This document shows, piece after piece, positions 7,366 to 50,625 of a DNA stretch of 64,000 nucleotides (position 1 is its first letter; each line of letters begins with the position of its first letter). Source of the DNA: Anaerobutyricum hallii. Lineage in GTDB: Bacteria > Bacillota > Clostridia > Lachnospirales > Lachnospiraceae. The position numbers and the translations under genes were made by a program. Location of the stretch: NCBI RefSeq assembly GCF_900209925.1, contig NZ_LT907978.1, positions 3,133,001-3,197,000 of the forward strand, given 5' to 3'. The notes below the pieces were generated by a model, which worked only from the letters and a program-made list of their open reading frames with translations, made no database searches and was not told the DNA's origin.

Positions 7366-7475
7366 CCCTTATCCTCTGTAATATACAAAATGCTTCGTAT
7401 CACTGTGTCCAAACTGCTTAACCGCAGCTTGAACTTGCTCTAAGGCGCATTTTTGTATATTACAGAGGATAAGGG
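7366..7475. repeat. Palindromic repeat family B, copy 1
   Basis: Arms CCCTTATCCTCTGTAATATA and its exact reverse complement enclose a non-symmetric core starting TGCTTCGTATCACTG and ending TTGCTCTAAGGCGC. The same core occurs at 10.6 and 18.8 kb with entirely different but again self-complementary arms. No gene is nearby on either side, apart from tRNA-Gly 190 bp downstream. Confidence 0.9.
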
Positions 7476-7607
7476 GGCTGTCCATTCTTAAACCTCCTAA
7501 CTACAAACTCCCAATCTGGCAAGTCTGTTAAAAACTTAGAAAAGTGAATTAATGAACTTTAGTTTTCTATAAAGCTATAATCTTCTGAACAATTTCAAAA
7601 AAAGCCC

Positions 7608-7636
7608 TTGCATTTTCAAAAAAACTGTGCTAGAAT
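7608..7636 (+). promoter_or_regulatory. Sigma-70-type promoter of tRNA-Gly(TCC)
   Basis: TTGCAT (-35) and TAGAAT (-10) are separated by 17 nt and end 29 nt before the tRNA 5' end. The -10 is preceded by TG-containing sequence (CTGTGC), which often strengthens Firmicute promoters. Confidence 0.65.
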
Positions 7637-7665
7637 AAATTTCGTTGTGAGACAGCACATCACAT

Positions 7666-7736
7666 GCGGGTGTAGTTCAATGGTAGAACACTAGCCTTCC
7701 AAGCTAGATACGTGGGTTCGATTCCCATCACCCGCT
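7666..7736 (+). tRNA. tRNA-Gly (anticodon TCC)
   Basis: 71-nt cloverleaf. The acceptor stem GCGGGTG pairs with CACCCGC, the anticodon arm is CTAGC-CTTCCAA-GCTAG with TCC at the anticodon, and the T arm is GTGGG-TTCGATT-CCCAT. CCA is not encoded. It lies 99 nt before a second tRNA-Gly gene that has its own promoter. Confidence 0.96.
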
Positions 7737-7775
7737 TTTATTTTTTCAAAGTTGTTAAAACATTTCAAATAGTTC

Positions 7776-7803
7776 TTGACAATTAGAAAATATATGATAT
7801 ACT
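7776..7803 (+). promoter_or_regulatory. Sigma-70-type promoter of tRNA-Gly(GCC)
   Basis: A perfect -35 TTGACA and the -10 TATACT are separated by 16 nt and end 32 nt before the tRNA 5' end. This shows the second tRNA gene can be transcribed independently of the first. Confidence 0.75.
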
Positions 7804-7835
7804 AAATATAGTTGAATAATTCATTTAAGTTTTAT

Positions 7836-7907
7836 GCACGAGTGGCTCAGTGGTGGAGTATCGCCTTGCCAAGGCGAGGGTCGCGGGTTCGAATCCCGTC
7901 TCGTGCT
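7836..7907 (+). tRNA. tRNA-Gly (anticodon GCC)
   Basis: 72-nt cloverleaf. The acceptor stem GCACGAG pairs with CTCGTGC, the anticodon arm is TCGCC-TTGCCAA-GGCGA with GCC, and the T arm is GCGGG-TTCGAAT-CCCGT. CCA is not encoded. A strong intrinsic terminator follows at 7955. Confidence 0.96.
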
Positions 7908-7954
7908 TTTTTTGTTGTCTTTTTACTCAACTAATTTATACTAGAATTAAATTT

Positions 7955-7992
7955 GGAGATGTTGCATTATAATAATATACTGCAACATCTCC
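7955..7992 (+). terminator. Intrinsic terminator after the tRNA-Gly genes
   Basis: A perfect 12-bp stem, GGAGATGTTGCA / TGCAACATCTCC, with a 14-nt AT-rich loop is followed by GTTTTTTC on the plus strand. It ends the tRNA-Gly transcripts and could also stop the convergent minus-strand membrane-protein transcript. Confidence 0.85.
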
Positions 7993-8022
7993 GTTTTTTC
8001 TACTTAATAGTAATTAGCCATC

Positions 8023-8466
8023 CTATGAACGAAAGGATAAATTTTTAATCCATATAAAATAAGAACTTGCCAACAGGATACTTGATAAGAACCATGTTAT
8101 ACCAAAGAAACTATATTTAACATTTGACCATAGCATATACGCAACAAACAATACTATCGCAATATAAAACAAAATACTTACAATCTTCCATATCAGCGAA
8201 TCATCGGACGAATAACAAATTTTTCTTATATCAACATATTCATTAGTTTGATATATCAAGGTGATGATAATCACTGCGATAGAACTAATAATTTTTATAA
8301 TAGCTGCTCCATAATTCCACATTATAGGAAAGATCAACAACACTATTGTATTACTAACTTTAGAACCATCCGCCGTATCCATCATAATTTTTACATATTC
8401 ATAAGATAGTAAATAATTAAGCCATGTTAAAAATAAAATAAATACTAAAAATGTCTTCTTTTTCAT
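8023..8466 (-). CDS. Hypothetical four-helix membrane protein
   Basis: 147 residues with about four hydrophobic segments: residues 5-22 (TFLVFILFLTWLNYLLSY), 40-75 (two helices around IVLLIFPIMWNYGAAIIKIISSIAVII), 90-110 (IVSILFYIAIVLFVAYML) and 118-140. No catalytic motif or recognised family is visible. It has a good SD (AAGGAG) and is 27 nt downstream of a small lipoprotein gene, so the two probably form an operon. Base composition is AT-rich relative to the surrounding metabolic genes, which may indicate recent acquisition. Function is unknown. Confidence 0.7.
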   Translation of the reverse strand: MKKKTFLVFILFLTWLNYLLSYEYVKIMMDTADGSKVSNTIVLLIFPIMWNYGAAIIKIISSIAVIIITLIYQTNEYVDIRKICYSSDDSLIWKIVSILFYIAIVLFVAYMLWSNVKYSFFGITWFLSSILLASSYFIWIKNLSFRS

Positions 8467-8493
8467 TACCTTGCTCCTTTATATCTAGATGTA

Positions 8494-8772
8494 TTATTTA
8501 ACATCTTCTATTGATTGCGTTGAAGCTTCTTCGGCAGCTTCCTGTTGATCTTCTTCACCTGCTTTATCATACCATTTTTGTGCTTTTTCTCCTTCTAACG
8601 TAGTGAATGTACCATCTCCGTTAGGGATATCAACTCTTATGACCTGTCCTCCCTGGTCAACAGAAACAGACTCATCAACCATATCACTTGTTTCTGACTG
8701 GTCTGTAAAAGTACAAGCATTTAATGACAACGCTATTGTCACTGCCATAATCATTCCTACTATTTTTTTCAT
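8494..8772 (-). CDS. Small predicted lipoprotein
   Basis: 92-residue protein with a lipoprotein signal peptide, MKKIVGMIMAVTIALSLNAC, where LNAC forms the lipobox and cysteine 20 would be lipidated. The mature part is short, acidic and Gln/Glu-rich (residues 21-92, e.g. EEDQQEAAEEASTQ). SD AGAGG lies 8 nt before the ATG. It is the first gene of a pair with the membrane protein downstream. No function is recognised; it is probably displayed on the outer face of the cytoplasmic membrane. Confidence 0.75.
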   Translation of the reverse strand: MKKIVGMIMAVTIALSLNACTFTDQSETSDMVDESVSVDQGGQVIRVDIPNGDGTFTTLEGEKAQKWYDKAGEEDQQEAAEEASTQSIEDVK

Positions 8773-8892
8773 AATAGACCTCTTTTCGTTTTAATTTTTT
8801 GCTTTCTTTAGGGCATTATTACTTTTTTATAATACATCTATTTATCCAGTTTTTCAAAACAAACCACTTCCGGTTAATGATTATTTTTTTCA

Positions 8893-8950
8893 TTCAAGTC
8901 GAGCAGTCACTCACCACCTGAAAGAGGTGGGAGTCTTCTCGACTGAGATA
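8893..8950. repeat. Short palindromic repeat, family I, copy 2
   Basis: It has the same borders as the copy at 7119 (ATTCAAGTCGAG and CTCGACTGAGAT) and the same inner hairpin CCACCTGAAAGAGGTGG, with a shorter spacer on one side. It lies in the gap between the lipoprotein gene and the kinase-like gene. Confidence 0.75.
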
Positions 8951-8983
8951 AAAAAAGAAGCCAGCTATATAACCGACTTCTTC

Positions 8984-9147
8984 TAGAGCGTATTTGAAAA
9001 ATGCTTTCTGCAAGATGTGCATCGCAATTTGCGGGAGATTTCGCCTGAATGAAGGCGGCGTAGCGGGCTACGGCAACTGAATGAAGGCAAAATATACCGT
9101 AAATTAAGGCGTGCAGGTTGTAGGAATGATTTTTCAAACACGCTCTA
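8984..9147. repeat. MITE-like inverted-repeat element, family H (long copy)
   Basis: Terminal inverted repeats TAGAGCGTATTTGAAAAAT and ATTTTTCAAACACGCTCTA bound a 126-bp interior that is clearly more GC-rich than its surroundings (GCGGGAGATTTCGCC, GGCGGCGTAGCGGGCTACGG). A minimal copy consisting of the two ends only is at 24958. It looks like a miniature inverted-repeat transposable element. Part of it can be read as an open frame, but it has no SD and no protein-like composition. Confidence 0.7.
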
Positions 9148-9192
9148 AACTGTATAAAAAATTCTCTGGTCAAAATTGATTCAACCTATCTC

Positions 9193-10422: not shown

Positions 10423-10593
10423 ATAATTCCCCCAATAATCTTCTATCCGAATCTATATTTATCTACATTTTTTCTGATTATTATTTAACTCTATAGACAA
10501 ACTTTCTCATAATTATTATAGCCTAATATTATGAATAAAAAAAGCAAAATGTTTGTCTGTGAGGTGGGAAAAAATGTGGCATTGGGAACAGAC

Positions 10594-10711
10594 GAAAACC
10601 TGAAAATCCCCATATATCACAAATGCTTCGTATCACTGCGTCCAAACTGCTCAACCGCAATTTGAACTTGCTCTAAGGCGCATTTGTGATATATGGGGAT
10701 TTTCAGATTTT
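10594..10711. repeat. Palindromic repeat family B, copy 2
   Basis: Arms CTGAAAATCCCCATATATCA and the matching TGATATATGGGGATTTTCAG enclose the family B core (TGCTTCGTATCACTGCGTCC ... CTTGCTCTAAGGCG). Borders are ACAGACGAAAA on the left and TTTTCTGTGTATT on the right, the same border motifs seen around families A and C. Confidence 0.9.
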
Positions 10712-10850
10712 CTGTGTATTGAACATTCCATGTTTGCCACTTTACAAGCTAGATGCTGTGAAGATTAACCCCAATTGCTGTGACTCATATTATGAATAAT
10801 ATTAAATTTGATTCCTTCTGGCATTCTTTATTGCCTGTCTTAGAAAAACA

Positions 10851-10974
10851 GAAGCTCGATAATAGATAATATATATATAAACTGTGACTTTAGAGCAAGC
10901 TCTTAATGCGGCTGAGCGTTAAGAGTGCAGTGATATGGAACAGTTTATATATATATTATCTATTATCGAGCTTC
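10851..10974. repeat. Palindromic repeat family B, copy 4 (reverse orientation, diverged)
   Basis: Arms GAAGCTCGATAATAGATAAT... and the mirror image ending ATTATCGAGCTTC give a 35-bp stem, with a core that reads as a diverged reverse complement of family B (TTAGAGCAAG, ATGCGGCTGAGC, GCAGTGATA). Borders AACAG on the left and GTCTA on the right are also inverted. It lies 31 bp from the 3' end of tRNA-Phe and may terminate it. Confidence 0.85.
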
Positions 10975-11005
10975 GTCTATTTCTCAAAAAAAGGCAATAA
11001 AAAAA

Positions 11006-11078
<73 letters not shown>

Positions 11079-11173
11079 ATTCATTGTATTGCTACAACGT
11101 CTAATATTTTACTTTATAAAGTAAATTTTGTCAATACAAAATGCATAAAAAAGTCTAAAAAAATTCAAAATTC

Positions 11174-11449
11174 TTATTCTCCGTACTCCGCGATCCACTC
11201 CGCAACCGTAGAGAATATTTCTTTATTCAGACTGTAATATGTCCACTTGCCATTCTTTCGAGCCTTTACCGCTCCTGCCTGCAATAAAATTCTCATATGA
11301 TGCGACAAAGTAGACTGTCCAAAGTCCATCTCATCTAAAAGTTCGCTGGCATTATATTCCCTTTCACGAAGTAATTCAAGAATCCGCAGTCGATTTTCAT
11401 CCGACATAGCTTTTAGTACTCTTGCGTGAACAACAAACTTTTTATTCAT
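11174..11449 (-). CDS. ArsR-family winged-helix regulator
   Basis: 91-residue ArsR/SmtB-type repressor: ALKAMSDENRLRILELL, then the recognition region DFGQSTLSHHMRILLQAGAVKARKNGKWTYYSL with the beta-wing. No CxCxC arsenic or metal motif is present, so the ligand may not be a metal. I chose the ATG of MNKKFV because AAAGGAG lies 13 nt upstream; a start ten codons earlier would read through that SD. It stands alone between tRNA-Phe and cysE, with no adjacent transporter or target gene. Confidence 0.85.
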   Translation of the reverse strand: MNKKFVVHARVLKAMSDENRLRILELLREREYNASELLDEMDFGQSTLSHHMRILLQAGAVKARKNGKWTYYSLNKEIFSTVAEWIAEYGE

Positions 11450-11570
11450 ATTATATATGATACTCCTTTCATTCCCCACCGCCTATAGAAGTGAACGTCT
11501 TCTCATCTAAAGTCACTTCTATAAGCGAATACCATAAACATCTGCAAGCTAAAACTTCGGCGAACTTTGC

Positions 11571-12521
11571 TTAAATCTCCCAGATTCCTTCCTTGTTCTC
11601 CGTTGTCTGAAGCTCAATCTTCTTATCAGAATCTTTAATCTTGATTTCCGGATTCTTTACGATTACCTTTGTATGTGCCGGAACAGACTTCGTTACAAAT
11701 GCTCCACCTGCTACGATAACACCCTCACCGATTTCTGTCTCTCCACCAAGAATACTGGCTCCAGAATATACCGTAACGTTATCTTTGATCGTCGGATGTC
11801 TCTTCTTACCCTTTAACTTCTGTCCACTTCTTGTAGAAAGTGCACCTAAAGTTACTCCCTGATATAACTTCACATTATTACCAATCTCTGTTGTCTCACC
11901 AATTACAACACCAGTTCCATGGTCAATAAAGAAATATTCCCCAATCTGTGCGCCAGAGTTAATATCAATTCCTGTACGGCTATGTGCATATTCCGTCATA
12001 ATTCGAGGAAGGAATGGCACATCCTGTGTATACAGCTCATGAGCGATTCTATAAACAAAAATAGCAAACAGCCCCGGATAAGAAATCACAACGTCCTCTC
12101 TGCTCTTTGCAGCAGGGTCACCGTCAAATCCAGCCTGCACATCTTTTAAAAGCATCTGCTGTACATGTGGAAGCCTCTTAAAAAATTCCTCACAGACTTC
12201 TTCTGCCCGCTCACTGATCTCTTCCTCTGTATACTTTTCATAATCTCTATAATACAAAGAAATCTCAATCTGCGGTTTTAACTTACCATAAATATCTGTC
12301 AGACGGTCACCGATAAAATACTGCGGAGAAATCAACGCAATATTCTCCTCTCCAAAATAACCAGGGAACATTATCCTCTTTAAATCCTTTAAAATACGAA
12401 TAATACAAGAACGATCAGGAAGACATCGTTCCCCCCTTGATACGATAAAATCTGTTTTATGGCAACTTTCCGTCATCTGAACGGATGCATTCAAAATAAT
12501 GTCTTTCATTGTCTCTTTCAT
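11571..12521 (-). CDS. cysE: Serine O-acetyltransferase
   Basis: Transfers acetyl from acetyl-CoA to L-serine, giving O-acetylserine, the first step of cysteine synthesis. At 316 residues it belongs to the longer group with an extra N-terminal alpha-helical domain (about 1-180). The C-terminal left-handed beta-helix (about 185-290) has the hexapeptide pattern and the active-site segment IDHGTGVVIGETTEIGNNVKLYQGVTLGALS. SD GGGAG precedes the ATG. It is monocistronic and no T-box or SAM-type leader is visible in the 130 bp upstream. Function is secure. Confidence 0.94.
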   Translation of the reverse strand: MKETMKDIILNASVQMTESCHKTDFIVSRGERCLPDRSCIIRILKDLKRIMFPGYFGEENIALISPQYFIGDRLTDIYGKLKPQIEISLYYRDYEKYTEEEISERAEEVCEEFFKRLPHVQQMLLKDVQAGFDGDPAAKSREDVVISYPGLFAIFVYRIAHELYTQDVPFLPRIMTEYAHSRTGIDINSGAQIGEYFFIDHGTGVVIGETTEIGNNVKLYQGVTLGALSTRSGQKLKGKKRHPTIKDNVTVYSGASILGGETEIGEGVIVAGGAFVTKSVPAHTKVIVKNPEIKIKDSDKKIELQTTENKEGIWEI

Positions 12522-12683
12522 AATTTAAGTCTCCCAACAAATTTTCAGAAGCATATACCCCTCACTTACAATATAAAGAGTACACTTCTGAGGTATATTG
12601 ATATACCTATATTTATGCTAAATTATAACAAACAACTACAGAAAATACAATTCCCAAATACTAATTTGATGGACTAAAGAGAC

Positions 12684-12803
12684 GAAAAGCAGAAATTTGA
12701 TATAGAAGAAAATGTGAAGATAGTCGCGGCGTAGAAAATGCCTGACCGGCATTTTTACTGGCTCCGACATCACATTTTCTTCTATATCAAATTTTTGCTT
12801 TTC
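12684..12803. repeat. Palindromic repeat family C, copy 1
   Basis: Arms GAAAAGCAGAAATTTGATAT... and its mirror image ending TTTGCTTTTC enclose the family C core (AGTCGCGGCGTAGAAAATGC ... GGCATTTTTACTGGCTCC). Border AGA-C before the left arm and TCTGCTATTTGGCTCCAGA after the right arm fit the shared border pattern. A few paired differences from the 34.1 kb copy keep the stem intact. Confidence 0.9.
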
Positions 12804-13037
12804 TGCTATTTGGCTCCAGATGGAAATTAGTATTTAAAGCTTGGATGGGAATAAGGGGATTGCCCAGAAGTCTATGGTTAGAAATTACTAATTTACTATT
12901 TGTTATCAAAACCAGGCAGTCACTGGAATAAAAATTTCCAGAGAAGAATATTTTCTCATGGTGAAACAGTTCTCCGATTAAAAATCATAGCCTTCTGGCA
13001 CATTCCATGTTGTTAAACCATAGATTTAGATAGTCAG
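12804..13037. repeat. Spacer linking two palindromes, related to family J
   Basis: The segment between the family C and family A copies. Its beginning (AAATTAGTATTTAAAGCTTG, then GATTGCCCAGAAGTCTATGG) is repeated at 34231 and, inverted, at 34.45-34.51 kb and in part at 27.62 kb. Its interior contains CCAGAGAAGAATATTTTCTC, which is also shared. The similarity shows that the intervening DNA travels with the palindromes. No gene is seen. Confidence 0.6.
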
Positions 13038-13151
13038 AAAAAAGAAATAATACCATATCCCAGATGCGGCTTCGGAGCGTGTTTAAGATGCGAATGAGCA
13101 TTTTAAACACGCTCCGAAGCCGCATCTGGGATATGGTATTATTTCTTTTTT
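13038..13151. repeat. Palindromic repeat family A, copy 2 (near-perfect)
   Basis: A6-GAAATAATACCATATCCC and its exact reverse complement frame a core that is itself symmetric here (CAGATGCGGCTTCGGAGCG on both sides), giving a stem of about 48 bp with a 17-nt loop. It ends 30 bp from the stop codon of the zinc-binding gene and is a likely terminator. The right border CGTCTACACGAAATC equals that of copy 1. Confidence 0.92.
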
Positions 13152-13180
13152 CGTCTACACGAAATCTACAAATTAGTATT

Positions 13181-13531
13181 TTAGAAGCCGCCTCCAGAAA
13201 CATCGAGCTTTCCATCGTCGTCTGCTGCTGTTCCGTTTGAACCACACCAGTTACACACAACTTTATCGGAGCCGTCATAGCAACTTACTTTTCCGCAGTT
13301 TCCGCAGACAAAACACTTCTTTGCTCCACAGTAAGGGCAGCCTGGGTATTCTTCGTCTGTGTAAAAGCTTCCGGTAAAGTTGATTTTATCGAAGCCTTCT
13401 TTTTCTGCAGTTTCTTCTTTTAATTTAAAGGCCCATGTACGAACCCAGTCATTATCTCTTTTTTCAATTCGAATTCCGTAAAGCTTATCCTGTGCACATT
13501 TTGCCAGAATTACGCTTGCCTCTTTCTTCAT
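13181..13531 (-). CDS. TerY-C-type zinc-binding protein
   Basis: 116 residues. The N-terminal half is unrecognised; the C-terminal half (about 66-105) has four CxxC-type pairs, CPYCGAKKCFVCGNCGKVSC and CNWCG, matching the cysteine-rich TerY-C domain normally fused to the vWA protein TerY. Here it is a separate gene, last in the operon, overlapping the PP2C stop by 4 bp. The end is low-complexity and glycine-rich (DVSGGGF). It probably acts in the same complex as the vWA proteins, kinase and phosphatase upstream. Confidence 0.75.
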   Translation of the reverse strand: MKKEASVILAKCAQDKLYGIRIEKRDNDWVRTWAFKLKEETAEKEGFDKINFTGSFYTDEEYPGCPYCGAKKCFVCGNCGKVSCYDGSDKVVCNWCGSNGTAADDDGKLDVSGGGF

Positions 13532-14340: not shown

Positions 14341-14341
14341 T

Positions 14342-18574: not shown

Positions 18575-18757
18575 AAAAGTACCCCCTTTGGAATTATCTT
18601 TTCACGTGCTATGACAAGACCAGCATTTCTCTTCCGGTCTTTAACGCCATCCTGTCACCATTATATAACAATTTACCTATTTTACAAACTGCTTTATCTA
18701 GTTCTTTGAGATAAATTCTTGCACGAAAATTTGTAAGGTTGAAGAAATAAACAGACG

Positions 18758-18872
18758 AACCCACATCTCCTGTAATCTATAAAAATGCTTCATTTCACTG
18801 CGTCCAAGCTGCTCATCCGCAACTTGAACTTGCTCTAAGGCGCATTTTTATAGATTACAGGAGATGTGGGTT
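18758..18872. repeat. Palindromic repeat family B, copy 3
   Basis: Arms AACCCACATCTCCTGTAATC... and the mirror image ending GAGATGTGGGTT surround the family B core (ATGCTTCATTTCACTGCGTC ... TTGCTCTAAGGCGC). Borders are CAGACG on the left and CTGTGTATTTC on the right. It lies between the divergent ends of the TerY-P operon (its 5' side) and asnS (its 3' side). The rest of the 507-bp gap shows no gene. Confidence 0.9.
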
Positions 18873-19081
18873 CTGTGTATTTCAATCCTACAAATCAATT
18901 CAATATAATAACAGTTTGCGTGTCAATCCTTAATATTTCATTTCATGGAAAGCTATACTCTTATGAATGATATCCAAATCCTACAACATGAATTCTGATT
19001 TTGCTTCTCCAGCCAAAGCACAGCCATCTGGAAATAAAAGAATCTATATTTCCAGATGGCGTCTACTTTACCTGCGGCAAA

Positions 19082-23108: not shown

Positions 23109-23123
23109 TTTAAAGGAATAGAC

Positions 23124-23240
23124 GAAAAAAGAAATACTACCATATCCCATCTGCTCTGTAGTCGCTGTGTTTAAGATGCTCATCCGCATCTTAAGCCCGC
23201 TCCGAAGCCGCATCTGGGATATGGTAGTATTTCTTTTTTC
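23124..23240. repeat. Palindromic repeat family A, copy 3
   Basis: Arms GAAAAAAGAAATACTACCAT and ATGGTAGTATTTCTTTTTTC are exact complements. The core is the asymmetric version (CTGTAGTCGCTGTGTTTAAG on one side, CGCTCCGAAGCCGC on the other). It is bordered by ATAGAC and TGTGTTTTGGCTCCAGAAGG. It begins 16 bp after the upstream stop codon on the plus strand. Confidence 0.92.
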
Positions 23241-23264
23241 TGTGTTTTGGCTCCAGAAGGAGTG

Positions 23265-23340
23265 AATGCCGGACAGGCATTTTCTACGCAGTGATATCTT
23301 TACAGTTGCTATGGTCTATTCTTTTTATTTTCGTCTGTCC
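23265..23340. repeat. Half copy of palindromic family C
   Basis: This contains only the core's second half and right arm (AATGCCGGACAGGCATTTTC ... GCTATGGTCTATTC ... TTTTCGTCTGTCC), essentially identical to the right half of the copy at 23529-23645. It is fused directly to the right border of the preceding family A copy, which suggests recombination between palindromes. The following 120 bp (23345-23464) shows no gene or repeat. Confidence 0.8.
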
Positions 23341-23520: not shown

Positions 23521-23528
23521 AACAAACA

Positions 23529-23645
23529 GAAAATAAAAAGAATAGACCATAGCAACTGTAATGTGAGAGCAAGTAAAAATGCCGGACAGGCATTTTCTAC
23601 GCAGCGATATCTTTACAGTTGCTATGGTCTATTCTTTTTATTTTC
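23529..23645. repeat. Palindromic repeat family C, copy 4 (reverse), overlapping a gene end
   Basis: Arms GAAAATAAAAAGAATAGACC... and GGTCTATTCTTTTTATTTTC frame the family C core in reverse orientation (AAAAATGCCGGACAGGCATTTT, GCAGCGATATC). The right arm overlaps the stop codon of the phosphoesterase gene, and its border CGTCTGTCCCCTCCTAATGA encodes that protein's last residues. Confidence 0.92.
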
Positions 23646-24261
23646 GTCTGTCCCCTCCTAATGAATAGTAATCAATCCATTCATCTAAGGTTCGTGGTAT
23701 ATAGTCTGAATACATGCAAAAACAGTTGAACATATTACAGGGAATCGGCATAGGTTCTTCATCGTATTTCCCCTGTTTTTTTGTCTGTCTTGTAATCTGG
23801 CAGAACTGCCGCACAAGCTGTTCATCGAGTGTATCATGTACGTGACCGTAGAGCATGTAGGTGAGTGGTTCGCCTTTTTTATTTCTGCGATACTGTCCGT
23901 TGTAACAGAAAATTGGGTAATGGGATAAGACTACTTTTCGGCGGTTATCATGCATCTCCGCATAAGGTTTTATCCAGACAAAGCGTTCTTTATTGAACTC
24001 GCTTTCTTTTAAATATCTGTCATGATTTCCTTTTATCATATAAAGTCTGCCGTTAAGCTGATTTAAAATCTCATTTGTCTGCTCTGCTTTTCCTACGGAA
24101 AAATCGCCAAGAATCACCACCTCATCTCTGGTTCGCACTCTACTGTTCCACTGTTTTATCATATAAGCATTCATTTGTGCTGCATCCTTAAATCCACGAC
24201 AGTCCATTTGTGTATTTAGACTTTCGTGAAAAAAATGCAGATCTGAAATATAATATCGCAT
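23638..24261 (-). CDS. Calcineurin-like metallophosphoesterase
   Basis: 207 residues with the dinuclear-metal phosphoesterase motifs in order: SDLHFFHES (7-15; D-x-H), VILGDFSVGK (GD), IKGNHDRYL (GNHD), VVLSHYPIF (H) and LYGHVHD (GHxH). Substrate unknown; relatives hydrolyse nucleotides or phosphodiesters. SD GAGGAG precedes the ATG. The last residues (SLGGDRRK) and the stop lie within the border and arm of a family C palindrome: the same border occurs non-coding at 23.33 and 50.63 kb, so the repeat seems to have replaced the original 3' end. Otherwise intact. Confidence 0.88.
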   Translation of the reverse strand: MRYYISDLHFFHESLNTQMDCRGFKDAAQMNAYMIKQWNSRVRTRDEVVILGDFSVGKAEQTNEILNQLNGRLYMIKGNHDRYLKESEFNKERFVWIKPYAEMHDNRRKVVLSHYPIFCYNGQYRRNKKGEPLTYMLYGHVHDTLDEQLVRQFCQITRQTKKQGKYDEEPMPIPCNMFNCFCMYSDYIPRTLDEWIDYYSLGGDRRK

Positions 24262-27026: not shown

Positions 27027-27146
27027 CGTTGTCTCCTCTCTGTATTTCTCTCTTCTTCGCCAGTTGTACTGGCATTTCTTCCAATTCTTTCACTGTTATT
27101 TTACCAAAATTTGTGCTAAATAACAAGAGGTAGATTGAGAATAGAC

Positions 27147-27266
27147 GAAAAACAGAAATGTTAGATTATCTCCACTGTGAAGATAGTCGCGGCATAGAAA
27201 ATGCCTGACCGGCATTTTTATTTGCTCCGACATCACATTGGAGATAATCTAACATTTCTGTTTTTC
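27147..27266. repeat. Palindromic repeat family C, copy 2
   Basis: Arms GAAAAACAGAAATGTTAGAT... and the mirror image ending CATTTCTGTTTTTC enclose the family C core (AGTCGCGGCATAGAAAATGC ... TTTGCTCCGACATCAC). Arms differ completely from copies 1 and 3 beyond the first few bases, yet pair perfectly. Left border ATAGAC. Confidence 0.92.
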
Positions 27267-27351
27267 TGTCTACTCTAAAGTGGAATGGTTTGATAGGGAG
27301 ACAGATATTGCTGAAACGAGATTATAGGTCTGAATTATATATAAGATTCTA

Positions 27352-27515
27352 AAGAAAAGAGAATTTTTATAAGTTTGATTTTGTTCCGTTGCGCTAAACG
27401 CTTCATTTTGCCTCAAAAAACGAAAACTTCGGAAAAATAAGTCCGAAGTTTTCAGAGTCAAAATTCCACAGCACAAAGTCACAAAATGCAATACTTATAA
27501 AAATTCTCTTTTCTT
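27352..27515. repeat. Palindromic repeat family G, copy 1 (double hairpin)
   Basis: Outer arms AAGAAAAGAGAATTTTTATA and its complement enclose a long core with a second, inner hairpin, GAAAACTTCGGA ... TCCGAAGTTTTC. Core boxes TTCCGTTGCGCTAAACGCTT and CAAAGTCACAAAATGCAAT also occur, inverted, in the 34.6 kb copy, where both the outer and the inner stems carry paired changes. Confidence 0.9.
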
Positions 27516-27929
27516 CACTATCGTTTTCTTACAATTCAGCGTAAAGTTTTACTTATAGAACCCTTTCTTCATAAGATAAAAATAATTAGACAGATTTATT
27601 TCTGGAGATTTTTATTTGAATGAAAATTGTAGACCTTTGGACAATCCCCCTCTTTCCCTCAAAATAAAATTCCTGTCACTATATAGGAAAAGTAAAAAAT
27701 GAAGTATGTATTATTTTGAAACGAATGATAAAAGAATGATTCGCAACATATTAAATTTAATTTTTTCTTTGGGATTAACAGTGCGATTACAAAAATAATT
27801 TCAAGAATATCAGAAGATTTTAAACCTTCATTTTTTGTGTAGAAAATATTATAAAATATCCTGCGCTACATATAGCGAAAGAAGAAAGTATTAGAATATT
27901 GAATCCATTCCTTCTGGAGCCAAAACACA
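27516..27929. other. Gene-free stretch with one spacer-repeat fragment
   Basis: AT-rich sequence without a supported gene. Around 27600-27665 a fragment (GGAGATTTTTATTTGAATGA, GTAGACCTTTGGACAATCCC, CCTCTTTCCCTC) matches one arm of the family J-like spacer near 34.45-34.5 kb. The end (CATTCCTTCTGGAGCC, 27906-27921) is the usual border of family A copies. Otherwise I see nothing. Confidence 0.5.
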
Positions 27930-28046
27930 GAAAAAAGAAAAAATGACATATCCCAGATGCGGCTTCGGAGCGTGTTTAAGATGCGGACAAGCATCTTAAG
28001 CACAGCGACTACAGAGCATCTGGGATATGTCATTTTTTCTTTTTTC
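27930..28046. repeat. Palindromic repeat family A, copy 4 (reverse)
   Basis: Arms GAAAAAAGAAAAAATGACAT and ATGTCATTTTTTCTTTTTTC are exact complements. They differ from copy 3 (ATACTACCAT) on both sides at once, a compensatory change. The asymmetric core is in reverse orientation and so are the borders. It ends 26 bp from the pta stop codon and probably terminates pta. Confidence 0.92.
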
Positions 28047-28071
28047 GTCTATTCAGCTTTACAAATAAGAA

Positions 28072-33883: not shown

Positions 33884-33906
33884 TAATTTGTAGATTTCGT
33901 GTAGAC

Positions 33907-34025
33907 GAAAAAAGAAAAAACTAATACATCCCATCTGCTCTGTAGTCGCTGTATTTAAGATGCTCGTTCGCATCTTAAACACGCTCCGAAGCCGCATCTG
34001 GGATGTATTAGTTTTTTCTTTTTTC
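33907..34025. repeat. Palindromic repeat family A, copy 5
   Basis: Arms GAAAAAAGAAAAAACTAATA and TATTAGTTTTTTCTTTTTTC are exact complements and differ from other family A arms on both strands together. The asymmetric core follows (CTGTAGTCGCTGTATTTAAG; CACGCTCCGAAGCCGC). Left border AATTTGTAGATTTCGTGTAGAC is the reverse complement of the right border of copies 1 and 2. Confidence 0.92.
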
Positions 34026-34092
34026 TGACTATCCAAATCTACAGTTGGTGAGAATGGGGGATTAAATAACTAATTTGAGGGACTAAAGAAAC

Positions 34093-34212
34093 GAAAACCA
34101 GAAATTTAAGATAGCAGAAAATGTGAAGATAGTCGCGGCGTAGAAAATGCCTGTTCGGCATTTTTACTGGCTCCGACATCACATTTTCTTCTATCTTAAA
34201 TTTCTGGTTTTC
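34093..34212. repeat. Palindromic repeat family C, copy 3
   Basis: Arms GAAAACCAGAAATTTAAGAT... and ATCTTAAATTTCTGGTTTTC surround the family C core (AGTCGCGGCGTAGAAAATGC ... GGCATTTTTACTGGCTCCGA). It lies 67 bp after family A copy 5. The left border GGGACTAAAGAAAC and right border CTACTTTGGTTCCAGATG match those of copy 1 at 12.68 kb. Confidence 0.92.
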
Positions 34213-34233
34213 TCTACTTTGGTTCCAGATGAA

Positions 34234-34511: not shown

Positions 34512-34574
34512 CCTTATTAAGAACAGCCAGCCGCTGAAACAAAATTTTATGCTGAATTGTAAGGAAACTATGGT

Positions 34575-34740
34575 AAAGAAAAAAGAATGGTTATAAGTAT
34601 TGCATTTTATGACTTTGCGCTATGGAATTCTGACCATAGGAACTTGGGACTCGTTTTTCCCAAGTTCCTGTTTTTCTGGGCAGAATGGAGTGCTTAGCGC
34701 AACGGAACAAAACCAAACTTATAACCATTCTTTTTTCTTT
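34575..34740. repeat. Palindromic repeat family G, copy 2 (double hairpin)
   Basis: Outer arms AAAGAAAAAAGAATGGTTAT and its complement; inner hairpin AGGAACTTGGGA ... TCCCAAGTTCCT. Compared with the inverted copy at 27.35 kb, the outer stem differs (TGG versus TTTT) and the inner stem differs (AACTTGGG versus AACTTCGG), always with matching change on the partner strand. Core boxes GACTTTGCGCTATGGAATTC and GCTTAGCGCAACGGAACAAA are conserved. Confidence 0.9.
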
Positions 34741-34803
34741 AGAAGGCTAACTACAATTTAGCTCAATATCTTCTATTAAAGCGGCGTCTGTCTCCCCGGC
34801 AAA

Positions 34804-43160: not shown

Positions 43161-43210
43161 TGTATAATATATGCGGGAAATAACTATTTGATTCATTAGA
43201 GAAAACAAAC

Positions 43211-43327
43211 GAAAAAAGAAATACTACCATATCCCATCTGCTCTGTAGTCGCTGTATTTAAGATGCTCGTCCGCATCTTAAACACGCTCCGAAGCCGCAT
43301 CCGGGATATGGTAGTATTTCTTTTTTC
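43211..43327. repeat. Palindromic repeat family A, copy 6
   Basis: Arms GAAAAAAGAAATACTACCAT and ATGGTAGTATTTCTTTTTTC as in copy 3, with an asymmetric core. Left border ACTATTTGATTCATTAGAGA is also found at 46.23 kb; right border TGTGTTTTGGCTCCAGAAGG. Unusually, it lies upstream of a start codon (spoIID), not after a stop. Confidence 0.92.
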
Positions 43328-43410
43328 TGTGTTTTGGCTCCAGAAGGAATGGATGCAATAGTCTTTGGAAAGAGAAGGGGGCGAAATCAGAAGACTACTG
43401 CTTGCTCAGA

Positions 43411-43479
43411 AGATGATCTCATCCGCATCCTAAACACACTCCGAAGCCGCATCTGGGATATGGTAGTATTTCTTTTTTC
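43411..43479. repeat. Half copy of palindromic family A
   Basis: Only the right half is present: ATCCGCATCCTAAACACACT, CCGAAGCCGCATCTGGGATA and TGGTAGTATTTCTTTTTTC, followed by the usual border CTGTGTTTTGGCTCCAGAAG. It follows the complete copy 6 with 84 bp between, so the right half and border are tandemly duplicated. Confidence 0.85.
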
Positions 43480-43534
43480 TGTGTTTTGGCTCCAGAAGGA
43501 ATGAATGTAATAGTTTTTGAGAGGGAAGGGGAGA

Positions 43535-45667: not shown

Positions 45668-45682
45668 AGAAAGGAGATATAT

Positions 45683-46199: not shown

Positions 46200-46372
46200 A
46201 ATGTGTTTAAAAAACACTCCGGATAATAACTATTTGATTCATTAGGAGAAAACAGACGAAAATAAAAAACAATATAGAAAATATGAGAGAAAGCAAAAAT
46301 CTTCCGACCGAATCCCCCTGTTTTTCCCAATGGAATAACAATTTAAGTAATATCTTCTACAGCCAAAAAACA

Positions 46373-46489
46373 GAACCGTGAAAAAGTCCAATATAGAAAA
46401 TATAATATGGGAGCAACAAAAATGCGACTGAGCATTTTCTGCGTCCGCGACGACTTTTATATTTTCTATATTGGACTTTTTCACGGTTC
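46373..46489. repeat. Palindromic repeat family C, copy 6 (reverse, diverged)
   Basis: Arms GAACCGTGAAAAAGTCCAAT... and ATTGGACTTTTTCACGGTTC. The core read in reverse (GTCGTCGCGGACGCAGAAAATGC, with GCATTTTTGTTGCTCC) matches family C with differences. A related flank GATTCATTAGGAGAAAACAGACGAAAATAA precedes it at 46230, and borders ATGAATTAAAT follow. The remaining 46490-46778 region has only a TATAAT at 46603 as a possible -10 for eutS. Confidence 0.85.
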
Positions 46490-46778
46490 GTTTGTTTGTT
46501 AATGAATTAAATTGTTATTCCCCTTCCTCTCTTCTTGTAAAATCACAAAAGAATACTTGTAATTTATGACGGAGTTGCATTTACTTTACGGACACATTTT
46601 TATATAATATACACATATAGCATAAATCATGATGGATTAGTGTGTGCATTGGTCTGCTTTTTACATTTATTTGCATTGATATGACAAATCTTGTTCTCTG
46701 TGGCTACTTTTTAGCTGTAGAACGGTTTACTGATATGAACGATAAAAACAGATTGATGGATAACGAAAGGAGGAATCC

Positions 46779-47156
46779 ATGACGAAGGATATGATCAATA
46801 ACGGGGTTAATTCAGATGATAAGTCCCGTATTATTCAGGAGTATGTTCCGGGTAAGCAGATTACGCTTGCTCATATGGTAACCCGTCCAAAGGCTTCTGT
46901 TTATAAGAAGCTTGGTCTGCCGGATGATTATCATGATGCGATCGGTATTTTGACAATCACTCCTTCTGAGGCAACAATTATTGCGGCAGATATTTGTACG
47001 AAGGCGGCTTCTATTAAGTTAGGTTTTGTAGACCGTTTTTCTGGTTCTGTTATTATTGTAGGTTCTACTTCTAATGTGGAATCTGCACTAAACAGTGTTA
47101 TTACCACCTTCTATAATAAGCTCGGTTTTGATACCGTTTCTATTACAAAGACTTGA
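46779..47156 (+). CDS. eutS: EutS-type bacterial microcompartment shell protein
   Basis: 125 residues; single circularly permuted BMC domain. The N-terminal strand [20 protein letters not shown] (about 19-38), [43 protein letters not shown] (about 55-97) and [21 protein letters not shown] match EutS/PduU, which form hexamers with a beta-barrel over the pore. EVVPGKQVTLAH-like wording favours EutS. SD GAAAGGAGG precedes the ATG. It is first of a four-gene cluster with eutP and two kinase-like genes, and no ethanolamine ammonia-lyase genes are present. Confidence 0.9.
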
Positions 47157-47190
47157 TTTAGATACACTTTAGTTTGGAGATTATTTTTTT

Positions 47191-47670: not shown

Positions 47671-47687
47671 AACAGGGGGTGGTAGGC

Positions 47688-48941
47688 TTGATTACACTAT
47701 CAAAGGAGAATGTCGTTGATTATGTGAAGTCAAGGCTCGATTTTTTTAATCCAGATGGAGACATTAAAGTTTCTGCAATTGGAGAAGGTAGTGTAGAAGA
47801 AGACGGAGATGGTTTTATTAACTTTGTCTATCGTGTTTCTGACGGAGAGCATCATTTAATTGTAAAGCAGTCTACTTTGGAAGCTCGTTCTAAGGGTAGC
47901 TTCACTTTGGATTTAAACCGCTATAAGCTGGAATACGATGCCATGAAGATCTGTGCTGCGATCGTACCAGATCTGATTCCGAAGTTATATGACTGTGATG
48001 AGGAGAATCGTGTATTTATTACAGAAGATGTTTCCTATCTTCGAATCTCCCGCTTCCAGCTTTTAAAGGGTGTTACTTATCCAAAGCTTGCAGACCAGAT
48101 TGCAAGATATATGGCAGCAACACAGTTTTACACATCTGAATATTATTTAGATACAAAGTGTTTTCGTGATCTGAGTGTTCATTTCATGAATACAACTATG
48201 CGAAAGATTATGGAAGTCGGCATGTTCCTTACAAGTGTAACACCGGAGGATACCGTCGGACGACCTCTTGATCCTGAATTCATTACATTTTCCAAGAGAA
48301 TCTGTGCAGACCCTGCTGTTCTCTTAGCAAGACAAAAACTGAGACATCTTTTTATGTCTAAGGGAGAATGCCTGATTCACTGCGACCTGCATACCTCCAA
48401 TATTTTTGCCAGCCAGACTGAAGCAAAGGTAATCGACATGGAGTATTCCTTCTTCGGACCTTTTGCTTATGATATGGGATATTTTACCGCGAACTTTATC
48501 GCACAGTATGCTGCCGCTGCTTTCCGTCCATTTGAGACAGAAGAGGCTCGTAAGGAATTTAAAGCATACTGCCTGTTTATGATTCGTGAAACCTATGTGA
48601 AATATTGTGAATATTTCACACAGTACTGCAAAGAAGATTGCAAGCCTGAGTACCAGAATATTCCGGGGCTTGCCGAAGACTTCTGCCTGACAGCTCTTCG
48701 CGAGTTTATCGGCTTTGCTGCAAGTGCAATGCTTGGTCGTATCTGCGATCTTATTCCATATCCGGATTACGATGATATTGACGATTATGTACAGCGTCAC
48801 AACGCTAAATGTTTCTCTATCATTTTAAACAGGGAAATGCTTGTAAAATGGGAATCTTATAATTCTATTGATGAATTTATTCAGGACATCCTTACTATAG
48901 AAGAAATCTACTGTAGAAATATTAAAGATTTGAAATTATAA
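47688..48941 (+). CDS. Methylthioribose-kinase-like sugar kinase (BMC cluster copy 1)
   Basis: About 417 residues, aminoglycoside phosphotransferase fold, MtnK group. Seen: EDGDGFINFVYRV (about 38-50), K60 (IVKQS), EDVSYLRISRFQ, catalytic Asp233 in LIHCDLHTSNIF and the metal motif VIDMEYSFFGPFAYDMGY. I place the start at the TTG giving MITLSKEN, since AGGGGG lies 8 nt upstream and both paralogues start MI-x-x-KEN; a GTG three codons earlier lies inside the SD. It is closely spaced with eutP upstream and a paralogue downstream. The substrate is probably a pentose or 5-substituted pentose, not ethanolamine. Confidence 0.78.
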   Translation: MITLSKENVVDYVKSRLDFFNPDGDIKVSAIGEGSVEEDGDGFINFVYRVSDGEHHLIVKQSTLEARSKGSFTLDLNRYKLEYDAMKICAAIVPDLIPKLYDCDEENRVFITEDVSYLRISRFQLLKGVTYPKLADQIARYMAATQFYTSEYYLDTKCFRDLSVHFMNTTMRKIMEVGMFLTSVTPEDTVGRPLDPEFITFSKRICADPAVLLARQKLRHLFMSKGECLIHCDLHTSNIFASQTEAKVIDMEYSFFGPFAYDMGYFTANFIAQYAAAAFRPFETEEARKEFKAYCLFMIRETYVKYCEYFTQYCKEDCKPEYQNIPGLAEDFCLTALREFIGFAASAMLGRICDLIPYPDYDDIDDYVQRHNAKCFSIILNREMLVKWESYNSIDEFIQDILTIEEIYCRNIKDLKL

Positions 48942-48955
48942 AAGGGAGGCACATT

Positions 48956-50179
48956 ATGATTATTCTTACAAAGGAAAATATTCTTTCTTATATAAAAGAG
49001 CATGTGCCTTCCCTGCAGTTAAAAGAGCCGGTTAAAGTTTCTATGATTGGAGAAGGCGACCTCGGTGAAGACGTGGAAGGAGACGGTTACTGTAACTACG
49101 TTTTTCGCGTCAGTGATGCCGATGGACATTCTTACATTATAAAGCAGTCCACAGAACAATTAAAACGGCGTGGGCGTGCCCTCACTCCGACTCGTAACCG
49201 TTTCGAGTACGAGATTATGGAACTTAGGGCAAAGATTGTTCCGCAGTATGTTCCCGCTCTGTATCTTGGCGACCCGGAAAACAATGTATTTATTATGGAA
49301 GATGTTTCAAATCTAAAGCTCATTCGTTTCCAAATGAATAAAAATCATCTTTTCCCGGAACTGGCAAAGCAGGGCGCACAGTATCTTGCTGCCACACATT
49401 TTTATACTTCAGAATTCTATCTTCCAACAGAAGAATACCGCAAGCTTCTCGCACATTTTATGAACGCAGAACTGCGTGTTGTTATGGAGAACGGCATCTT
49501 CCTCAATATTTTCGGAGCAGATCAGTACGACCCTGCCTGCGGTCCGGAATTTGAAGAATATTGCAAGTCAATTCGCTTTGACCCAAATCTTGAATTCCAG
49601 AGATATAAACTGCGCCATCTCTTTATGAGCAAGTCAGAAACACTGATTCATGGCGACTTCCATACTTCCAATATCTTTGCAGATGATACACATTTGAAAG
49701 TTATCGATATGGAATATACCTTTGGTGCACCGTTTTCATACGATCTCGGATTCATCATTGCAAATATTATTTCTCAGGCCTGCTCCGCAGCTGTCCGCCC
49801 ATTTGATACGGAAACGCATCGAAAGAACTATGTCGCTTATCTCATCTCCCTTATCGAGATGCTCTATACTTACTATATTCAGTTCTTCTTTGAATACTGG
49901 GAAAAAGATGCGAAGCTTGAATATAAGATTACAAACGGCTACAAAGAAAGCCTTGCACTTGATATCTTACGAGAATGCTTTGGCTTTGCCGCCTGCGTAA
50001 ACTTCAGCCGCGTATGTGGTGATATGGATACAGCCGACTTTGACTGCATCAAAGATAATACACTCCGCACAAAGGCGAAATTTGCTTCTGTTACGATCGA
50101 TAAGATTCTGTTTGAAAAATGGGATTCTTATAATGATGTTAAAGAAGTCATTGAAGATATTGTAAATGTATTATTCTAG
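48956..50179 (+). CDS. Methylthioribose-kinase-like sugar kinase (BMC cluster copy 2)
   Basis: 407 residues, last of the eutS-eutP-kinase-kinase cluster. Seen: EGDGYCNYVFRV (41-52; MtnK has GDGNLNYVFHI), K63 (IIKQS), MEDVSNLKLIRFQMNKN, catalytic Asp234 in LIHGDFHTSNIF and VIDMEYTFGAPFSYDLGF. It shares more motifs with the stand-alone copy at 9.2 kb (IRFQMNKNHLFPELAKQG versus VRFQLNKNKMFPELGRQC) than with its immediate neighbour, so the pair is not a recent tandem duplication. SD GGGAGG before the ATG. A family A palindrome starts 11 bp after the stop and may terminate the operon. Confidence 0.78.
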   Translation: MIILTKENILSYIKEHVPSLQLKEPVKVSMIGEGDLGEDVEGDGYCNYVFRVSDADGHSYIIKQSTEQLKRRGRALTPTRNRFEYEIMELRAKIVPQYVPALYLGDPENNVFIMEDVSNLKLIRFQMNKNHLFPELAKQGAQYLAATHFYTSEFYLPTEEYRKLLAHFMNAELRVVMENGIFLNIFGADQYDPACGPEFEEYCKSIRFDPNLEFQRYKLRHLFMSKSETLIHGDFHTSNIFADDTHLKVIDMEYTFGAPFSYDLGFIIANIISQACSAAVRPFDTETHRKNYVAYLISLIEMLYTYYIQFFFEYWEKDAKLEYKITNGYKESLALDILRECFGFAACVNFSRVCGDMDTADFDCIKDNTLRTKAKFASVTIDKILFEKWDSYNDVKEVIEDIVNVLF

Positions 50180-50189
50180 AGAAATAGAC

Positions 50190-50304
50190 GAAAAAGAAAC
50201 AATACCATATCCCATCTGCTCTGTAGTCGCTGTGCTTAAGATGCTCATCCGCATCTTAAACACGCTCCGAAGCCGCATCTGAGATATGGCATTGTTTCTT
50301 TTTC
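50190..50304. repeat. Palindromic repeat family A, copy 8
   Basis: Arms GAAAAAGAAACAATACCATA and TATGGCATTGTTTCTTTTTC (one mismatch) with the asymmetric core (CTGTAGTCGCTGTGCTTAAG; CACGCTCCGAAGCCGC). Border ATAGAC on the left and TGTGTTTTGGCTCCGGAAGG on the right. It begins 11 bp after the kinase stop codon. Confidence 0.92.
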
Positions 50305-50322
50305 TGTGTTTTGGCTCCGGAA

Positions 50323-50490
50323 GGAATGAATGCAATAGTATTTGGGAAAGAGATGGGGAAGAGGACAGAAGGTTGTGGCTTATTCTGATGCCATTTTCTC
50401 AATAAAAATCCCTGATAGAGATATCTTCCGAGCAAGAATAGTCTCCTGACCTCTCCCCCTTCTCTCACCAAAGACTATTTCATTCATTCC
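50323..50490. repeat. Complete spacer palindrome, family J
   Basis: GGAATGAATGCAATAGTATT... GAGATGGGGAAGAGGACAG on the left pairs with CTGACCTCTCCCCCTTCTCT ... ACTATTTCATTCATTCC on the right (several mismatches), leaving a roughly 75-bp interior with GGCTTATTCTGATGCC. It joins a family A copy and a family C copy. Half copies are found at 23.47, 43.34 and 43.50 kb. Confidence 0.8.
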
Positions 50491-50508
50491 ATGTGATACC
50501 AACACACA

Positions 50509-50625
50509 GAAAATAAAAAGAATAGACCATTGCAAATATAAAGATATCACTGCGTAGAAAATGCCTGTTCGGCATTTTTACTTGCTCTCACATTATATTT
50601 GCAATGGTCTATTATTTTTATTTTC
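50509..50625. repeat. Palindromic repeat family C, copy 5 (core inverted relative to borders)
   Basis: Arms GAAAATAAAAAGAATAGACC... and the mirror image with borders ACACACA on the left and GTCTGTTCCCTCCTAATGAA on the right, the same reverse borders as copy 4 at 23529. But here the core reads forward (AAGATATCACTGCGTAGAAA, GGCATTTTTACTTGCTCTCA). The segment between the arms has thus flipped relative to copy 4. Confidence 0.88.

What the first reader, a model, noticed from the sequence alone, without database searches (positions are those of the whole stretch)
7366..50625. Families of long palindromes with conserved asymmetric cores and freely changing, always self-complementary arms
Family B shows it most clearly: the copies at 7366, 10594 and 18758 share a core of about 55 bp (TATCACTG, TTGCTCTAAGGCGC) while their 20-25-bp arms are unrelated between copies, yet each arm is the exact complement of its partner. 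The same holds for family C (12684, 27147, 34093, 23529, 46373, 50509) and, with paired point changes, for family A (13038, 23124, 27930, 33907, 43211, 50190). Families A, B and C also share outer border motifs (AGACGA on one side, TCTGTGT or TCTGACT on the other), so they probably spread or function by one mechanism. Constant loop with copy-specific arms is not typical of REP/BOX elements, where the whole unit is conserved. Possible explanations: structured RNA or terminator function selecting pairing, hairpin-templated repair of arms, or a mobile unit that copies flanking DNA into an inverted duplicate. This is the strongest candidate in the window for something undescribed.
Basis: seen in the sequence. 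Interest (0 to 1): 0.78.

Follow-up and report, generated by a model that had tools for sequence, protein, structure and literature searches.

The report
Repeated hairpins with self-copying arms
Two sister gut bacteria carry more than two hundred scattered DNA hairpins with a constant loop, while the two sides of each stem drift in sequence but are apparently recopied from one another so that they nearly always match, a natural record of how DNA copying can mend a palindrome.

Summary
The palindromes are real and share one architecture: a foot (ACAGACG ... CTGT) encloses a ~30-bp stem of nearly fixed length but variable sequence, an asymmetric core with conserved motifs, and an apical hairpin. 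I collected 216 distinct copies (166 here, 50 in the sister species Anaerobutyricum hallii). A model search found none in 59 other relatives, 22 of them congeners. Close neighbours are head-out pairs in 27 of 31 cases; 26 of 51 classified hairpins start within 31 nt of a stop codon.

Stem changes are mostly paired, including A-T/C-G swaps without intermediates. Family C: 70 both-sided cells against 14 one-sided or unpaired inside the feet, 0 against 22 outside. Remaining mismatches are 36 G-T and 37 A-C, so RNA-level selection is not the likely driver. Three copies have one half of the core copied over the other, one has its core inverted, and three orthologous copies show paired changes in place. 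This fits DNA template switching between the arms (quasipalindrome correction).

The elements resemble REPINs or MITEs but fail REP membership; no partner transposase was found. The open puzzle is turnover: only 6 orthologous hairpins were found, and several sites hold different hairpins in the two species. Verdict: a new variant of a known kind.

The parts
7361..7480 (+). hairpin, family B (foot degenerate: TGACG ... CTG)
10590..10714 (+). hairpin, family B; orthologous copy in A. hallii with one paired arm change
10849..10978 (-). hairpin, family B2, inverted partner of 10590; orthologous copy in A. hallii
12680..12805 (+). hairpin, family C
13035..13156 (-). hairpin, family A, with the core symmetrised: the 3' half of the core copied over the 5' half (55 positions, 1 mismatch)
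18753..18875 (+). hairpin, family B; a foot and part of one arm are left at the orthologous A. hallii site
23120..23242 (+). hairpin, family A; A. hallii has a family D hairpin at this site
23285..23340 (-). half of a family C4 hairpin (one arm plus foot)
23527..23649 (-). hairpin, family C4, inverted partner of 23120; A. hallii has a family D hairpin next to the same right-hand flank
27143..27268 (+). hairpin, family C; A. hallii has a family B hairpin in this interval
27928..28050 (-). hairpin, family A; A. hallii has a family D hairpin in this interval
33903..34027 (+). hairpin, family A; A. hallii has a family D2 hairpin in this interval
34088..34214 (+). hairpin, family C (foot degenerate: AAACG ... 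CTCTAC)
43207..43329 (+). hairpin, family A
43430..43481 (+). 3' half of a family A hairpin (partial duplicate)
46371..46493 (-). hairpin, divergent C-like core
50186..50306 (+). hairpin, family A
50507..50629 (-). hairpin, family C4, inverted partner of 50186, with its core INVERTED relative to its feet

Best explanation
These are units of a lineage-specific family of non-coding, REPIN/MITE-like dispersed elements. Each unit is a ~120-136-nt DNA hairpin with a constant foot, a stem of nearly fixed length and a constant asymmetric core, about half of them in head-out pairs with an inverted partner. The stem sequence itself is not what is selected. When a base in one arm changes, a replication template switch (the nascent strand folds on the hairpin or crosses to the sister strand and copies the opposite arm) either erases the change or copies it to the other arm. 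The arms therefore stay complementary while wandering in sequence. Occasionally the switch runs into the core and makes it symmetrical, or inverts it. The core, the foot and the stem LENGTH are kept because something recognises the hairpin, most likely the enzyme that moves it. Shown: architecture, paired changes, their confinement to the stem between the feet (family C), absence of G-U bias, symmetrised and inverted cores, paired changes at orthologous copies, few shared copies between sister species. Inferred: template switching as the physical process, mobility by an unidentified enzyme, recognition of core and foot.
For: Paired changes: family C stem 70 both-sided cells against 8 one-sided and 6 unpaired; outer stem beyond the feet 0 against 12 and 10 (Fisher p 1e-13). 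Families A and B likewise exceed all 500 shuffles and the slid controls on cells changed on both sides. Double transversions (A-T/C-G in 10 of 27 copies, G-C/C-G in 14 of 30) with no intermediate at those two pairs. Leftover mismatches in 215 of 216 hairpins: 36 G-T, 37 A-C, 23 transversions, of 5,160 pairs. Symmetrised cores 3 of 216, inverted core 1 of 216. These match what template switching between inverted repeats is reported to do: arm homogenisation and spacer inversion (PMC8604942, passages), and one-step compensatory changes (PMC8794818, abstract and passages). In place: 5 orthologous hairpins, 140 pairs, 4 paired changes in 3 hairpins, 8 one-sided. Mismatch number does not rise with core divergence in A (rho -0.01, n=66) or C (rho -0.05, n=31); other groups are small and mixed (C4 -0.49, n=24; D +0.38, n=10; B +0.12, n=9 and +0.26, n=8). 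Near-fixed arm length: foot to core anchor 42-44 nt in 190 of 207 measured (sought only between 34 and 52).
Against: In place, one-sided changes (8) outnumber paired ones (4), so correction may be too slow by itself to explain how clean most copies are; recent copying of perfect copies, or re-templating at each transposition, may add. The 216 hairpins were collected with a detector that requires >=18 of 22 paired, which hides decayed copies; the core-only control found 13 of 114 with fewer than 22 of 24 paired. Cells are not independent events: four-gamete conflicts are 1 of 15 in A and 10 of 36 in C. By species the mismatch ratio leans opposite ways, neither significant: own 16 G-T to 25 A-C, A. 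hallii 20 to 12. Template switching was not observed directly.
Confidence: 0.6

Rival explanations
1. Arms are re-made at birth: when the element moves, it passes through a single-stranded hairpin and one arm is the template for the other, so every new copy starts perfect and then decays.
For: Fast turnover: only 6 orthologous hairpins were found among 62 own and 40 A. hallii hairpins in stretches that partly overlap. Resident orthologous copies gather one-sided changes (8 in 140 pairs).
Against: Two hairpins whose arms resemble no other copy listed show paired changes in place (W 10590, W 10849). In the two largest groups the number of unpaired bases does not rise with core divergence, as decay after birth would predict.
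Confidence: 0.25
2. A structured RNA or terminator whose pairing is kept by natural selection.
For: In 33 of 51 classified hairpins the foot faces the 3' end of a gene, and 26 of these 33 lie within 31 nt of the stop codon. Strong folding.
Against: No G-U over A-C excess (36 to 37), whereas two-step compensatory changes in rRNA involve G-U pairs in 78.5% of cases (PMC8794818, passage). In family C paired changes stop at the feet although the outer sequence also pairs. No Rfam match at gathering score.
Confidence: 0.12
3. Concerted evolution by ectopic gene conversion between dispersed hairpins, with the core as the region of homology, explains the different hairpins at shared sites.
For: 6 of 96 collinear gaps carry hairpins of different type in the two species where 2.1 are expected (p 0.005). 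In two gaps that I inspected (near 23.1 and 33.9 kb) an outer flank is shared up to the foot.
Against: Conversion between copies with unrelated arms would leave mismatched arms unless the tract covers both arms; it does not explain arms that match no other copy. Gaps differ in length, so the expectation is rough; separate insertions at favoured sites are not excluded.
Confidence: 0.2
4. A mobile unit that copies flanking DNA into an inverted duplicate.
Against: The conserved foot lies outside the arms. Of 160 distinct arms (110 + 50), 84 have a match of >=20 of 24 outside detected hairpins, by eye nearly all in undetected hairpin copies (only the sampled stretches were searched).
Confidence: 0.02

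Closest known systems
REP / BIME / REPIN elements with RAYT transposases (PMC3116915, passages; PMC3733652, first of eight parts and passages)
   Same: High copy number, extragenic, often downstream of genes, inverted doublets (27 of 31 close neighbours), short tag at the stem foot
   Different: 118-136 nt instead of 20-40; tag is AGACG, not GTAG; the stem sequence is free in families B and D; none of 7 Y1 (PF01797) genes lies between hairpins
CGTC-tagged REPs (PMC3733652, same parts)
   Same: A CGTC/GACG tag next to a palindrome, and no dedicated transposase known
   Different: Described as 20-40 bp with 4-5-nt loops; here GACG precedes the stem and a large structured core is present; the five phyla listed there do not include Firmicutes
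Quasipalindrome template-switch mutation / inverted-repeat arm homogenisation (PMC8604942, passages; PMC8794818, abstract and passages; PMC7202029, search listing only)
   Same: Arms made identical, multi-base paired changes, spacer inversion
   Different: In what I saw, known from yeast genes, rRNA stems and reporters; here a dispersed element family shows it, with stems that wander towards random similarity in B and D while length stays nearly fixed
Stem-loop sequence families in bacteria (PMC2267715, PMC1590033; search listing only) and bacterial MITEs (PMC3733652, introduction)
   Same: Dispersed, foldable, non-coding repeats
   Different: Not read in full; a constant core with free arms may or may not be described there

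Membership tests
REP/REPIN | 20-40-bp palindrome conserved as a unit | tested here: not met
   length 118-136, mode 123 (own) and 132 (A. hallii); B and D arms not conserved
REP/REPIN | GTAG-type tag at the foot | tested here: not met
   foot consensus ACAGACG ... CTGT (AGACG and CTG are partly required by the detector)
REP/REPIN | RAYT (Y1) gene flanked by the repeats | tested here: not met
   7 PF01797 matches; hairpins detected in 2 of their 7 ~3-kb loci, never on both sides of the gene
REP/REPIN | inverted doublets | tested here: met
   27 of 31 neighbours <900 bp apart are head-out pairs, gaps 81-659
CGTC REP | CGTC tag at one end of a short palindrome with 4-5-nt loop | tested here: not met
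   GACG is 5' of the stem (CGTC on the complementary strand), length 118-136 with a large core
MITE | terminal inverted repeats | tested here: inconclusive
   some composites share AAATACTAATTTG-like ends but several flank types exist
MITE | target-site duplication | tested here: inconclusive
   no clean empty site found among those inspected
MITE | mobilising transposase | tested here: inconclusive
   Y1 and PDDEXK_2 genes examined, no consistent flanking; other families not tested
Known Rfam RNA | match above gathering score | tested here: not met
   only tRNAs above gathering in the whole window; relaxed search of 10500-13300 gave miRNA/plastid matches below gathering
Intrinsic terminator | G+C-rich stem followed at once by a T-run | tested here: inconclusive
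   stem followed by CTGTNTTTTGG in the own consensus; termination not assayed, no terminator scan run
Template-switch-maintained quasipalindrome | arm homogenisation in paired, multi-base steps | tested here: met
Template-switch-maintained quasipalindrome | spacer inversion or symmetrisation | tested here: met
   1 inverted, 3 symmetrised of 216
Template-switch-maintained quasipalindrome | new mutations seen being templated in real time | not testable with these tools
   needs population sequencing

The most novel reading that the evidence does not exclude
The hairpin between the two feet is an exchangeable cassette handled by a dedicated, still unknown enzyme that recognises core plus foot, measures a fixed ~30-bp stem, and rebuilds one arm on the other each time it acts. 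It swaps whole hairpins at fixed chromosomal feet, a rolling-hairpin-like or homing mode of movement.
Probability: 0.1. Interest if true: 0.85.

Novelty: new variant of a known kind. Interest (0 to 1): 0.6.

Why it matters
Compensatory changes in stems are often read as proof of RNA function. Here is a large natural series, in two gut species, where covariation is strong, the G-U signature of RNA selection is absent, and symmetrised and inverted cores point to DNA-level templating. It warns against reading covariation alone as RNA structure, offers a data set for estimating template-switch rates in nature, and describes an element family that my searches did not find described, with few shared copies between sister species and no known mover.

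Tried and rejected
Rfam at gathering score for the window and relaxed for 10500-13300: no family. Y1 transposases: 7 genes, hairpins detected in 2 of 7 loci and never on both sides of the gene. PDDEXK_2 'Rpn' nucleases: one A. hallii composite holds such a gene between inverted hairpins. Of 16 PF12784 loci, 6 have hairpins (9 in about 51 kb, slightly denser than the 1 per 8-10 kb of the sample); that one is flanked head-out, two more (L183, L187) have same-direction hairpins on both sides. Too weak for a link. Arms taken from chromosomal DNA: not supported. Viral contigs: four exact patterns, one hit without a hairpin. The first covariance model, R1, got a poor structure and was not used.

Hypervariable arms at one site (own 1,081,6xx, 'OB 78575'): I first took the 59 of 60 identical upstream bases as a yardstick. 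On checking, that flank holds a promoter-like TTGACA-17-TATACT, while the downstream flank is only 39 of 54 identical and the hairpin 85 of 123; the other five orthologous hairpins are 91-99% identical. So faster-than-neutral arms are NOT shown.

Literature: searches listed no paper that names such elements in Anaerobutyricum; the library holds open-licence papers only. I saw listings, one outline with abstract, one of eight parts of another paper, and passages of four papers; none was read whole.

Rows dropped before counts: of 88 search loci given to the core regex, 10 B and 3 A loci missed and 1 B duplicate was removed. The set of 36 hairpins behind R1 left out three (two found no border, one had an inverted core) and R2 used 18 hairpins. 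One hairpin skipped; 1 inside an ORF and 2 without neighbours; copies not of modal length. Foot consensus and arm quality lean towards the detector's own requirements; one search is the control that does not. The generic-hairpin control counted masked N runs in G008 and G020 and is not used; only its bordered-hairpin count is.
Full report
WHERE IT IS. The window is bases 3,133,001-3,197,000 of a single 3.516-Mb contig.

WHAT IS THERE. All 15 inverted repeats named in the finding exist. Genome searches gave 43 matches to a family B query, 91 to A and 78 to C, both strands counted and only 40 candidates scored each. Alignments hold 17 B, 27 A and 30 C copies. Each family has the same plan: AGACG, a stem arm, a 5' loop motif (such as TATCACTGCG or TAGTCGCTG), an apical hairpin, a 3' loop motif (GCTC ...), the other arm, CTG. 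The two loop anchors are 37 nt apart in 35 of 36 tabulated copies, 36 in the other. The distance from foot to loop anchor is 42-44 nt in 190 of 207 hairpins where it was found, although the stem sequence differs. The foot is ACAGACG ... CTGT; AGACG and CTG are required by the detector, the neighbouring letters are not.

HOW MANY AND WHERE. A detector using only foot and arms finds 62 hairpins in 483 kb of this genome and 40 in 402 kb of A. hallii. That extrapolates to some 450 and 330 copies, a rough figure because the stretches were partly chosen near known copies. A covariance model finds them in 2 of 61 genomes tested, this one and A. hallii, and in 0 of 22 other same-genus genomes (strict filters, 58 candidates scored per genome, 39 of the 61 at least 90% complete). 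A detector scan of ~252 kb from five of those congeners, part of it masked, also gave 0. Close neighbours are head-out inverted pairs in 27 of 31 cases, i.e. 54 of the 102 hairpins. Of 54 hairpins in the window and the A. hallii stretches, 51 could be classified: 33 point their AGACG foot at the 3' end of a gene, 26 of these within 31 nt of the stop codon, and 3 lie between divergent genes (genes are mechanical ORFs of >=100 aa).

THE ARMS. Found by core alone, 101 of 114 copies have >=22 of 24 complementary arm bases. Between copies, B, B2 and D arms share on average 10-14 of 22 bases (random 7.2), D2 15.8, and A, C and C4 arms 17-19. In family C the stem between the feet shows 70 both-sided changes against 8 one-sided and 6 unpaired cells; the outer stem beyond the feet shows 0 against 12 and 10 (test). 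In family A the stem gives 26 both-sided against 1 one-sided and 8 unpaired cells. Family B varies at every one of 31 stem pairs, with both-sided changes at 26. Two pairs show double transversions with no intermediate: A-T/C-G in 10 of 27 A copies, G-C/C-G in 14 of 30 C copies. Cells are not events: four-gamete conflicts occur in 1 of 15 (A) and 10 of 36 (C) comparisons.

RNA OR DNA? If pairing were kept by selection on a transcript, surviving mismatches should be G-U rather than A-C. Over 215 of 216 hairpins, 5,064 of 5,160 pairs are Watson-Crick, 36 are G-T, 37 A-C and 23 transversions; by species 16 to 25 here and 20 to 12 in A. hallii, neither significant. In rRNA, 78.5% of two-step compensatory changes involve G-U (PMC8794818, passage). 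So RNA pairing is not the likely keeper of the arms; a DNA-level copying process is the better reading. Template switching between inverted repeats is reported to homogenise arms and to invert spacers (PMC8604942, passages). Both traces are here: one copy (50507-50629) has its core inverted relative to its feet, and three copies (13035-13156 and two elsewhere) have one half of the core copied over the other, in all three the 3' half (three cases do not prove a direction).

SISTER SPECIES. A. hallii contigs align collinearly with the window and other regions. Six hairpins are orthologous and alike. In five of these, 140 arm pairs show 4 paired changes (in 3 hairpins, one of them two adjacent pairs) and 8 one-sided changes. 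Independent mutation would give about 0.1 paired change by my rough estimate. Two of the three hairpins have arms unlike any other in the lists, so conversion from another copy is unlikely there. The number of mismatches does not rise with core divergence in the two largest groups, A and C; smaller groups are mixed. Steady correction predicts this, decay after a perfect birth does not. Against it, in place one-sided changes outnumber paired ones, so copying events may add to the cleaning. The sixth hairpin (OB 78575) differs at 12 of 28 arm pairs, but so does its downstream flank (39 of 54 identical), while the near-identical upstream flank holds a promoter-like sequence. It does not show that arms outrun neutral sequence.

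THE PUZZLE. Few copies are shared, and sites are reused. In 6 of 96 collinear gaps both species have hairpins but of different arm and core types (18 and 11 gaps occupied, 2.1 expected, p 0.005), in two of those inspected with an outer flank shared up to the foot. Exchange between dispersed copies, a mover that replaces hairpins at fixed feet, or repeated insertion at favoured sites would do this. I could not decide, because one genome per species is held and no clean empty site was found among those inspected.

WHAT MOVES IT. Not found. Seven Y1 transposase genes and 16 PDDEXK_2 matches in the two species do not consistently lie between hairpins. Four exact patterns found no copy in viral contigs.

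COMPARISON. It works like a REPIN/BIME (inverted doublets, 3' of genes, tagged hairpin foot; PMC3116915 and PMC3733652, passages) but fails the size, tag and RAYT tests. CGTC-tagged REPs share the letters of the tag but not its side, size or loop. The mechanism proposed for the arms is known.

Noticed in passing
window 8984-9147: A different imperfect palindromic repeat (AGAGCGTRTTTGAAAAATGC ... CTCTAA); similar sequence appears at two or three A. hallii sites printed, two of them where this genome has a hairpin.
   Followed up: partly
window 7121-7184 and 8892-8945: A repeated hairpin (TCAAGTCGAG ... CACCACCTGAAAGAGGTGG ... CTCGACT) of another family, near tRNA genes.
   Followed up: no
window 27345-27522 and 34574-34741: A third repeat family with ACTTATAA / TTATAAGT arms around a GTTCCGTTGCGCTAA-type centre, lying downstream of hairpins.
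   Followed up: no
L157 6700-7780 (A. hallii C91): A PDDEXK_2 (Rpn-type) gene between two inverted hairpins; a decayed relative seems to lie in another A. hallii hairpin-bearing insertion (C4 ~37.3-37.9 kb, by eye).
   Followed up: yes
L140 about 8.8-9.1 kb (A. hallii C4): Foreign DNA with its own inverted repeat inserted into the core of a family D-like hairpin.
   Followed up: no
own genome about 3,373,220-3,373,520 (OA 67220-67520) against A. hallii C69: At an orthologous site A. hallii keeps the feet CAGACGAA ... TTCTG but holds a coreless, terminator-like hairpin between them.
   Followed up: no
L043 against A. hallii C95: A. hallii carries a chimeric hairpin that looks like a deletion between short repeats of an ancestral A + C4 pair, so both families probably predate the species split.
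   Followed up: partly
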